From: an uncultured Olleya sp.
Lineage (GTDB): Bacteria; Bacteroidota; Bacteroidia; Flavobacteriales; Flavobacteriaceae
Length of the DNA: 64,000 nucleotides
NCBI GenBank assembly: GCA_947503885.1
Contig: CANNFD010000001.1
Location: 186,001 to 250,000, forward strand
Reading direction: 5' to 3'
The position numbers and the translations under genes are program-made. Below, piece after piece: positions 4,533 to 6,169 of this stretch. The stretch's first letter is position 1, and the number at the start of each line of letters is the position of its first letter. The notes under the pieces are model-generated. The model did not search any database. It was not told the origin of the DNA and worked only from the letters and a program-made list of their open reading frames with translations.

Positions 4533-4724
4533 AAATTATAATTTTATGCAAAGATAGTAGAGTTTTGCTGTTTTAACAGAATTTAGTGTTGTGATTTAGC
4601 CAACCAACTATTTTTAATACTTAGTAAAAATTCACCTAAAATAGATTTGAAAATTATTATTAAAATTAACATTTTTTAAGAGTTGCATATAGCTATAAGC
4701 ATTAATTTTGCAGACTTAAATTAA

Positions 4725-4789
4725 TTATCAAGAATCTCGGAAAAGGAGATAGCAACCTGCAATAACAAGCAAGGTGCTAAATAGATAAG
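4725..4789 (+). ncRNA. Compact S-box / SAM-I-like riboswitch aptamer candidate
   Basis: TTATCAAGA...GCAACC...GGTGCTAA...AGATAAG appear in order, matching the conserved S-box core segments. P1 ttatc/gataa, P2 atctc/gagat, P3 acctgc/gc-a-aggt can form. P4 and the longer P2 with pseudoknot loop are not visible. Confidence 0.7.
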
Positions 4790-4850
4790 CCAATTATTTG
4801 GAACAAATGTTAAATCATACTTCTACTTATTTGCTGCTATTTCCTTTTTT
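4741..4850 (+). promoter_or_regulatory. Putative expression platform of the S-box-like leader
   Basis: aaaaggagatagca (4741-4754, the aptamer P2 3' strand plus the start of GCAACC) pairs over 14 bp (one G-U) with tgctatttcctttt (4835-4848), which is followed by more T and then the start codon at 4868. Confidence 0.6.
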
Positions 4851-4867
4851 AATAATGAAAAAGAAAA

Positions 4868-6169
4868 ATGGCCAAATTGAAAACAGTTACTCCTAAATTT
4901 TCAGCATTAATACCACTATTCGTATTTGTTTTTACGTTTTTAGGTGTTGGTATTTATCAAAACGATTTTTATGCTTTACCTGCTCCTATTGCAGTAATAG
5001 TAGGGATTGTTGTTGCTTTTTTAATGTTTAGACAATCCATAAATTCTAAAATAAAAACAGTATTAAAAGGTTGTGGTGACGATAAGATTTTAACCATGTG
5101 TTTGATCTATTTATTGGCAGGTGCATTTGCAGCAATTACTAAAGCAACCGGTAGTGTTGATGCTATCGTAAATCTTGGTTTAGATTATATAGCCCTACAA
5201 TACATTTATTTAGGTGTTTTTATTATTGCTGGATTTTTATCAGTCTCTACAGGGACTTCTGTTGGAGCTATAGTGGCTTTAGCACCAATAGTAGTTGGTA
5301 TTGCAGAAAAAAGTAATATTGACTTAGGTATACTTTGTGGTGCCTTATTAGGCGGAAGTATGTTTGGAGATAATTTATCTATTATATCCGACACCACAAT
5401 TGCAGCAACGCAATCCTTAGGATGTAAAATGAGCGATAAGTTTAAACAGAATATTAAAATTGTAATTCCTGCTGCAATATTTACTATTATTATTTTAATA
5501 TTTCAAGGTATTGGCATAAAAAACGTAGCAACTGAAACCGTAGTTTACAGTTATTCTGTTATAAAAATATCACCCTATATTTTAGTTATCCTACTATCCA
5601 TTATTGGTATTAATGTATTTGTTACTTTGTTTATTGGTGTTATTGCTAGTGGCTTACTTGGTATTATTTATGGCGATTTTACATTAATAGAATCTACAAA
5701 AATTGCCTACACAGGATTTACAAGTATGACTGAAATATTTTTATTATCACTTTTAACGGGTGGTTTGGCAGCTTTAGTAGAAAAAAATGGCGGGATTGAT
5801 TATATATTAAACAAAATCAAATCCTTAATCAAAAACAAGAGGTCTGCTCAGTTTGGTATTGCGACTTTAGTAAGTACAATTAATATGGCAATTGCAAATA
5901 ATACAGTGTCTATAATTATTGCTGGTCCAATTGCTAAAACTATTAATGACCAATATGGTTTAGACAATAAAAAAACAGCTTCAATATTAGATGTTTTTGC
6001 ATGTATTACTCAAGGTTTACTGCCTTACGGTGCACAAGTTTTAATGATTTTAAGTTTTTCTGAAGGGAAAATAGATTATTTAGATTTGGTGACTAATACC
6101 TGGTATTTGGCTGCATTACTTATTTATACTCTACTATTTATTGGCTTTAAGCCACTACGAATAAGTTAA
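4868..6169 (+). CDS. NhaC-family Na+/H+ antiporter superfamily transporter; candidate methionine transporter (MetT-like) by riboswitch context
   Basis: Polytopic membrane protein with NhaC-type motifs (STGTSVGAIVALAPIVVGIAEKS, GALLGGSMFGDNLSIISDTTIAATQ, IANNTVSIIIAGPIAK); preceded by the S-box-like leader. Confidence 0.85.
   Translation: MAKLKTVTPKFSALIPLFVFVFTFLGVGIYQNDFYALPAPIAVIVGIVVAFLMFRQSINSKIKTVLKGCGDDKILTMCLIYLLAGAFAAITKATGSVDAIVNLGLDYIALQYIYLGVFIIAGFLSVSTGTSVGAIVALAPIVVGIAEKSNIDLGILCGALLGGSMFGDNLSIISDTTIAATQSLGCKMSDKFKQNIKIVIPAAIFTIIILIFQGIGIKNVATETVVYSYSVIKISPYILVILLSIIGINVFVTLFIGVIASGLLGIIYGDFTLIESTKIAYTGFTSMTEIFLLSLLTGGLAALVEKNGGIDYILNKIKSLIKNKRSAQFGIATLVSTINMAIANNTVSIIIAGPIAKTINDQYGLDNKKTASILDVFACITQGLLPYGAQVLMILSFSEGKIDYLDLVTNTWYLAALLIYTLLFIGFKPLRIS

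What the first reader, a model, noticed from the sequence alone, without database searches (positions are those of the whole stretch)
4725..4868. Miniature S-box/SAM-I-like riboswitch upstream of an NhaC-family transporter
Seen directly: UUAUCAAGA, GCAACC, GGUGCUAA and AGAUAAG occur in S-box order within 65 nt, and P1, a short P2 and P3 can be drawn. The usual long P2 arm with its pseudoknot loop and the P4 arm appear to be missing. Established: S-box RNAs control methionine/SAM genes, and MetT-type methionine transporters belong to the NhaC superfamily. Inference: this is a compact S-box variant controlling a methionine transporter, so the '4868 Na+/H+ antiporter' label is probably wrong in function. 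The apparent loss of P4 and the pseudoknot could mean altered ligand recognition.
Basis: partly seen in the sequence, partly recalled or inferred. Interest (0 to 1): 0.78.

Follow-up and report, generated by a model that had tools for sequence, protein, structure and literature searches.

The report
SAM-I/IV riboswitch controlling a methionine-type transporter
The sequence is a complete member of a known class of RNA switches that sense the methyl donor S-adenosylmethionine; it sits in front of what is very probably a methionine uptake gene in marine flavobacteria, and the new part is a well-supported prediction of how it hides the gene's start codon when the cell has enough S-adenosylmethionine.

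Summary
Window 4720-4817 (+) is a full-length Rfam RF01725 SAM-I/IV riboswitch (62.1 bits, cut-off 41.1). It is not a stripped or ligand-altered S-box. Lack of P4 and of the P2-loop pseudoknot is normal for this class. In 59 orthologous leaders the SAM-pocket nucleotides are invariant.

The gene at 4868 is a MetT-type transporter. It is 49% identical to a Fusobacterium protein encoded beside methionine gamma-lyase and about 42% identical to Vibrio proteins with MetJ operators, and it falls far below the NhaC equivalog cut-off. In sampled Flavobacteriaceae genomes all ten close orthologues carry the riboswitch.

New here is a comparative model of the expression platform. Strand 4835-4848 pairs either with the aptamer (4741-4754) or with the start codon (hairpin 4836-4872), predicting a translational OFF switch in a phylum that lacks Shine-Dalgarno sites. 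SAM binding and methionine transport were not measured.

Verdict: new member of a known kind, modest interest.

The parts
4703..4711 (+). Bacteroidota -7 promoter element TAATTTTGC (TAnnTTTG); expected transcription start about 4714-4720, just before the aptamer
   Evidence: Motif present at a near-constant distance in 56 of 60 orthologous leaders; the consensus itself is from established knowledge of Bacteroidetes promoters; start site inferred.
4720..4817 (+). SAM-I/IV riboswitch aptamer (RF01725), full length
   Evidence: cmscan 62.1 bits, E 7.4e-08 over the window, model 1-99/99
4725..4729 (+). P1 5' strand (pairs with 4784-4788); J1/2 AAGA follows
   Evidence: Compensatory changes at 3 of 5 pairs across 34 Bacteroidota RF01725 hits
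4734..4750 (+). P2 hairpin AUCUC...GAGAU (no internal loop, no PK-1)
4751..4778 (+). P3 with the SAM-pocket nucleotides AGCAACC...AGGUGCU
   Evidence: C-AA-CC and GGUG invariant even in distant members
4763..4767 (+). PK-2 5' strand UAACA in the P3 loop
   Evidence: Pairs with 4808-4812; pair types UA/CG/AU and AU/GU/GC at the two ends
4784..4788 (+). P1 3' strand GAUAA
4790..4801 (+). P5 hairpin CCAA-UUAU-UUGG
4808..4812 (+). PK-2 3' strand UGUUA
4741..4754 (+). Strand 1: P2 loop, P2 3' arm and J2/3 (AAAAGGAGAUAGCA); pairs with strand 2 in the SAM-free state
   Evidence: Duplex -20.9 kcal/mol, z -4.4 in the window; mean z -3.3 over 60 leaders; 5 pairs with two-sided changes
4835..4848 (+). 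Strand 2: switching strand UGCUAUUUCCUUUU; pairs with strand 1 (ON) or with the start-codon region (OFF)
4836..4872 (+). Start-codon sequestering hairpin: GCUAUUU 4836-4842 x AAAUGGC 4866-4872, inner stem 4844-4851 x 4856-4863
   Evidence: -9.9 kcal/mol, z -3.0; accessibility tests over 60 leaders
4868..6169 (+). MetT-type transporter, 433 aa, of the NhaC/CitMHS superfamily
   Evidence: Pfam PF03553; TIGR00931 NhaC equivalog 89.9 bits against a cut-off of 370; 49% identical to the protein encoded beside Fusobacterium methionine gamma-lyase

Best explanation
A SAM-I/IV riboswitch that turns a methionine transporter (metT) off, by blocking translation, when S-adenosylmethionine is plentiful. SHOWN (sequence and comparison): a complete SAM-I/IV aptamer with P1, P2, P3, P5, PK-2 and an intact SAM pocket lies between a Bacteroidota -7 promoter element and the start codon of a MetT-type transporter, and this arrangement is conserved in Flavobacteriaceae. 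Also SHOWN by comparison: strand 4835-4848 is complementary both to the aptamer's P2/J2-3 segment (4741-4754) and to the start-codon region (4866-4872). INFERRED: with SAM bound, the aptamer holds strand 1, so strand 2 folds back on the start codon and ribosomes cannot start. Without SAM, strand 2 invades the aptamer (14-16 bp), leaving AUG 4868 and its A-rich upstream region single-stranded, so the transporter is made. INFERRED: the imported substrate is methionine, the direct precursor of SAM, which closes a feedback loop.
For: RF01725 full-length 62.1 bits. Pocket columns invariant in 59 leaders. PK-2 pairs stay paired through UA/CG/AU and AU/GU/GC changes. Family-level covariation: 124 two-sided cells against 57 in shuffles, 0/500 reach it. 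Anti-aptamer duplex: mean z -3.3 in 60 leaders; cognate pairings stronger than non-cognate, -16.3 against -14.7 kcal/mol, with the lowest of 2000 permutation means at -15.7; covariation score 0.176, 0/500 shuffles and well above any slid register (at most 0.101). Locking the aptamer lowers start-region accessibility in 36 leaders and raises it in 4 (Wilcoxon p 6e-8). For the window, OFF fold -30.7 with the AUG fully paired, ON fold -32.6 kcal/mol with the AUG free, before ligand and PK-2. No intrinsic terminator at 4540-4900. Flavobacterium mRNAs lack Shine-Dalgarno sites and initiation is tuned by secondary structure and upstream adenines (PMC6847099). Transporter: 49% identical to a Fusobacterium protein encoded beside methionine gamma-lyase, a gene pair described as the megL-metT operon in F. 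nucleatum (PMC9600241); Vibrio homologues with tandem MetJ boxes 72-79 nt upstream, matching the MetJ-repressed metT of PMC3228920. Ten of ten close orthologues (58% identity or more) among 101 Flavobacteriaceae genomes lie right behind an RF01725 hit; the second NhaC-family protein of this genome (25% identical) has none.
Against: No binding, expression or transport data. In the window the unconstrained fold already forms the sequestering hairpin (start accessibility 0.33 free against 0.30 locked), so switching must depend on co-transcriptional folding and ligand. About a third of the leaders show no accessibility difference, and a few have a weak anti-aptamer duplex (L049, L051, L047). Methionine as substrate rests on homology to a subfamily whose own assignment is mostly regulatory and contextual.
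Confidence: 0.78

Rival explanations
1. A degenerate or compact S-box (SAM-I) that lost its pseudoknot and P4 and now recognises another ligand.
For: P4 and PK-1 are absent; the RNA is only about 98 nt.
Against: SAM-I model 29 bits, below its 44.4 cut-off, against 62.1 for SAM-I/IV. P5 and PK-2 are present and covary. All pocket positions invariant. PMC2864571 describes SAM-I/SAM-IV variants without the P2 internal loop as an established group.
Confidence: 0.03
2. Same riboswitch and gene, but the switch acts by transcription attenuation (intrinsic or Rho-dependent) instead of start-codon masking.
For: SAM-I/IV hits before metK (L111) and metY (L116) in other Bacteroidota are followed by terminator-like GC hairpins with T runs (sequence), so the class can work that way.
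Against: No terminator in 4540-4900; strand 2 folds onto the AUG itself in the window, and the model OFF fold pairs the AUG at least partly in 58 of 60 leaders. Rho-dependent termination cannot be excluded.
Confidence: 0.12
3. Regulation through a leader peptide whose AUG lies in the PK-2 3' strand (4807-4809): SAM masks that AUG, and translation of the short frame opens the metT start.
For: An AUG is present at this place in 49 of 60 leaders, and in many the frame ends within about 15 nt of the metT start.
Against: 11 of 60 leaders lack the AUG; frame lengths vary from 3 to 200 codons; changes are not concentrated at third positions (167/222/202) and 323 codon differences are non-synonymous against 89 synonymous.
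Confidence: 0.05
4. The transporter carries another substrate (Na+/H+ exchange, tyrosine, arginine/ornithine or a SAM-pathway by-product) and SAM control serves another purpose.
For: NhaC-family proteins include such transporters: tyrosine T-box controlled members (PMC2494555) and ArcD (weak match).
Against: NhaC and ArcD equivalog cut-offs clearly missed; nearest well-contextualised homologues lie beside methionine gamma-lyase or under MetJ boxes; three unrelated methionine-linked contexts agree.
Confidence: 0.12

Closest known systems
SAM-I/IV riboswitch, Rfam RF01725 (variant SAM-I/SAM-IV RNAs of PMC2864571)
   Same: Full-length model match; same P1-P2-P3-P5-PK-2 layout; same SAM-pocket nucleotides; P2 without internal loop.
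   Different: The Rfam consensus tail (aaggaguua) resembles a Shine-Dalgarno site; here the PK-2 3' strand is UGUUA and the start codon lies about 55 nt further on, reached through a separate switching strand.
SAM-I (S-box) riboswitch, RF00162
   Same: Shared core motifs and SAM pocket.
   Different: No P4, no PK-1, short P2; 29 bits, below the family cut-off.
SAM-IV riboswitch
   Same: PK-2 and P5 (layout in PMC6890682).
   Different: No P2a/P2b split and no PK-1.
MetT, the NhaC-superfamily methionine transporter of Vibrio, Shewanella and Fusobacterium (PMC3228920, PMC9600241)
   Same: 42-49% identity over nearly the full length to Vibrio and Fusobacterium members; tied to methionine regulation or enzymes in each lineage.
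   Different: Regulator: SAM-I/IV RNA here, MetJ in Vibrio, the shared megL promoter in Fusobacterium.

Membership tests
SAM-I/IV riboswitch (RF01725) | Match to the family covariance model above its gathering score, full length | tested here: met
   62.1 bits against 41.1, model 1-99/99
SAM-I/IV riboswitch (RF01725) | SAM-pocket nucleotides of the clan (A-U..G-A in J1/2, C-AA-CC, GGUG, AU in P1) | tested here: met
   Invariant in 59 orthologous leaders and in 34 diverse hits; assignment to the pocket from established SAM-I structure
SAM-I/IV riboswitch (RF01725) | PK-2 between P3 loop and 3' tail | tested here: met
   5 bp UAACA x UGUUA; compensatory end pairs
SAM-I/IV riboswitch (RF01725) | Hairpin 3' of P1 (P5); P2 without internal loop or PK-1 | tested here: met
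   sequence
SAM-I/IV riboswitch (RF01725) | Binds SAM | not testable with these tools
   Needs in-line probing or calorimetry
SAM-I (S-box), RF00162 | Model score above gathering cut-off; P4 and PK-1 | tested here: not met
   29 bits against 44.4; P4 and PK-1 absent in the sequence
SAM-IV | PK-1 and split P2a/P2b | tested here: not met
   P2 is 5 bp with a short A/G-rich loop; no PK-1 partner (sequence)
NhaC Na+/H+ antiporter (TIGR00931 equivalog) | Score above the curated equivalog cut-off | tested here: not met
   89.9 bits against 370; 26% identical to an annotated NhaC and split from it by a long, fully supported branch
MetT methionine transporter | Close homology to genes in methionine regulons or operons | tested here: met
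   Fusobacterium homologue beside methionine gamma-lyase, Vibrio homologues with tandem MetJ boxes
MetT methionine transporter | Transports methionine | not testable with these tools
   Needs uptake assay or growth of an auxotroph

The most novel reading that the evidence does not exclude
A SAM-I/IV riboswitch with a Shine-Dalgarno-free translational platform: one switching strand is shared between the aptamer's P2/J2-3 segment and the start codon itself, the aptamer strand (AAAAGGAGAUAGC) and the start region (AAAAAGAAAAAUGGC) being look-alikes that compete for it. If general, this would be a model of how riboswitches control translation in a phylum whose mRNAs lack Shine-Dalgarno sites.
Probability: 0.6. 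Interest if true: 0.42.

Novelty: new member of a known kind. Interest (0 to 1): 0.28.

Why it matters
It corrects two labels at once: the RNA is an ordinary SAM-I/IV riboswitch rather than a stripped S-box, and the gene is a methionine-type rather than a sodium/proton transporter. It also gives a concrete, covariation-backed proposal for riboswitch control of translation in Flavobacteriia, where the usual textbook target (the Shine-Dalgarno site) is absent. That proposal can be tested with a simple reporter.

Tried and rejected
Leader peptide starting in the PK-2 tail: rejected as a conserved coding frame. Intrinsic terminator: none found. S-box (RF00162) or SAM-II (RF00521) elsewhere in the genome: RF00162 gives only the same locus below cut-off; RF00521 gives nothing, but no control genome rang either, so that negative is weak. 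Solved structures of the transporter: no sequence relative in the PDB. Riboswitches beside distant homologues (L058, L065-L082, L138-L145): none. The Aeromonas homologue (L139) gave no clear metbox; its reading frame start was not resolved. SAM-I/IV structure paper (PMC4020084): not held.

Full report
Observation. A scan of the whole window against Rfam gives one hit at gathering thresholds: RF01725, SAM-I/IV riboswitch, 4720-4817 (+), 62.1 bits against a cut-off of 41.1, E 7.4e-08, all 99 model positions (alignment). Against the S-box model RF00162 the same place reaches only 29 bits, below its cut-off of 44.4. The RNA is therefore not a shortened S-box. It is a full-length representative of the SAM-I/IV family described in 2010 (PMC2864571), whose members lack the internal loop in P2.

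The "missing" parts. There is no hairpin between P3 and the 3' strand of P1, and no long P2 with a pseudoknot loop; both absences fit the RF01725 consensus. The hairpin 3' of P1 (P5, 4790-4801) is present. So is the family's own pseudoknot PK-2: UAACA in the P3 loop (4763-4767) with UGUUA in the tail (4808-4812). In relatives the outer PK-2 pair is UA, CG (L121, L123) or AU (L129, L131), and the inner end pair is AU, GU or GC. P1, P2 and P3 show many compensatory changes over 34 Bacteroidota members (whole structure: 124 cells changed on both sides against 57 in shuffles, none of 500 reaching it; slid registers at most 54). PK-2 and P5 align poorly across the most distant members, so their low pairing percentages are not informative. 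One caution on naming: PMC6890682 says in passing that SAM-I/IV has a P4 when compared with SAM-IV. The Rfam consensus and the RNA here have none between P3 and P1, and I follow the SAM-IV naming for the 3' hairpin.

Conservation. A protein search brought in 79 loci. Sixty-one of the 62 leaders examined (the window and L004-L064) carry the core right upstream of the orthologous gene; the exception is L058. L044 has the core but its PK-2 tail was not recognised, leaving 60 for the later tests. In 59 distinct leaders the pocket-forming nucleotides are invariant. A Bacteroidota -7 element (TAnnTTTG) lies at a near-constant distance upstream in 56 of 60, so transcription probably starts just before P1. 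In a sample of 101 Flavobacteriaceae genomes, ten have a close orthologue (58% identity or more) and all ten have an RF01725 hit directly upstream. Nearly all of the genomes hold a more distant NhaC-family protein, including a second one in this genome (G000:C1:364990-365736, 25% identical), which has no RF01725 hit.

Expression platform. The segment from the P2 loop through J2/3 (4741-4754, AAAAGGAGAUAGCA) is complementary to 4835-4848 (UGCUAUUUCCUUUU). The duplex scores -20.9 kcal/mol in the window (z -4.4), with mean z -3.3 over 60 leaders. Matching a leader's strand 1 with its own downstream region gives stronger pairing than with those of other species (-16.3 against -14.7 kcal/mol; none of 2000 permutations as good). 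The alignment shows five pairs changed on both sides and a covariation score of 0.176, against at most 0.101 for any slid register. These controls do not fully remove relatedness, but the slid registers do keep it.

The same strand also folds onto the start codon: 4836-4842 pairs with 4866-4872, which includes AUG 4868-4870 (hairpin 4836-4872, -9.9 kcal/mol, z -3.0; counts). When the aptamer is taken out of competition, start-region accessibility falls in 36 leaders and rises in 4. With each state imposed, the window's OFF fold is -30.7 with the AUG paired and the ON fold -32.6 kcal/mol with the AUG free, before ligand and PK-2 are counted. That near balance is what a switch needs. Over all leaders the median difference is 2.1 kcal/mol in favour of OFF. 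Flavobacterial mRNAs lack Shine-Dalgarno sites, and initiation is tuned by secondary structure and upstream adenines (PMC6847099), so masking of the AUG and its A-rich flank is a sensible target. No intrinsic terminator was found. A leader peptide from the AUG inside PK-2 was tested and rejected.

The gene. The 433-aa protein matches Pfam PF03553 but reaches only 89.9 bits against the NhaC equivalog model, cut-off 370. The best relative outside Bacteroidota found in the plasmid collection is from Fusobacterium (49%), directly downstream of methionine gamma-lyase. In F. nucleatum this gene pair is described as the megL-metT operon, with metT encoding a methionine transporter (PMC9600241). Two Vibrio homologues carry tandem MetJ operators 72-79 nt upstream of the start: AGACGTCTAGACGTTG scores 14 of 16 (0 of 2000 shuffles) and GGACGTCTAGACTGTT 12 of 16 (p about 0.01). 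This agrees with the MetJ-repressed metT of PMC3228920. In the tree the true NhaC outgroup is separated by a long, fully supported branch, while relations inside the MetT side are poorly resolved. The substrate remains an inference.

What is known and what is new. The riboswitch class is known and the transporter type is known. I found no paper in the held library describing this pairing in Flavobacteriia or this platform, but the library lacks most subscription journals. The platform model is the only part that adds to knowledge, and it awaits experiment. I therefore score the finding modestly.

Noticed in passing
L002:1501-1594 (-), own genome contig C6:119908-120001 (-): A second RF01725 hit (48.6 bits) in the same genome, with J1/2 reading UAUUUCGAA instead of UAUCAAGA (A-U and G-A of the pocket kept), upstream of a 217-aa protein without Pfam match that lies next to an XdhC-like gene.
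   Followed up: partly
L087, L089, L091, L095, L096, L099, L103-L107, L109, L112-L115, L120, L124, L126, L128, L134: More than half of the RF01725 hits fetched from Bacteroidota genomes have a variant P3 (ACCAACCGA...CGGUGGU) or altered J1/2 and mostly lie 40-85 nt before short proteins of unknown function (no Pfam match in 9 of 10 tested, the tenth only below threshold). The SAM pocket nucleotides are kept; why such genes would be under SAM control is unexplained.
   Followed up: partly
L111, L116: SAM-I/IV hits in other Bacteroidota families precede metK-like and metY-like genes and are followed by terminator-like hairpins with T runs, suggesting transcriptional platforms there.
   Followed up: no
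L129, L131: SAM-I/IV hits in two genomes of another family of the same order lie upstream of a probable TonB-dependent receptor, a candidate outer-membrane partner for methionine or cobalamin uptake.
   Followed up: no
window 4807-4896: A 29-codon frame starts at the AUG inside the PK-2 3' strand and overlaps the metT start; not conserved as coding sequence.
   Followed up: yes
L121, L123, L125, L127: Relatives with an orthologous transporter (about 60% identity) carry a diverged version of the same leader with compensatory PK-2 changes.
   Followed up: partly
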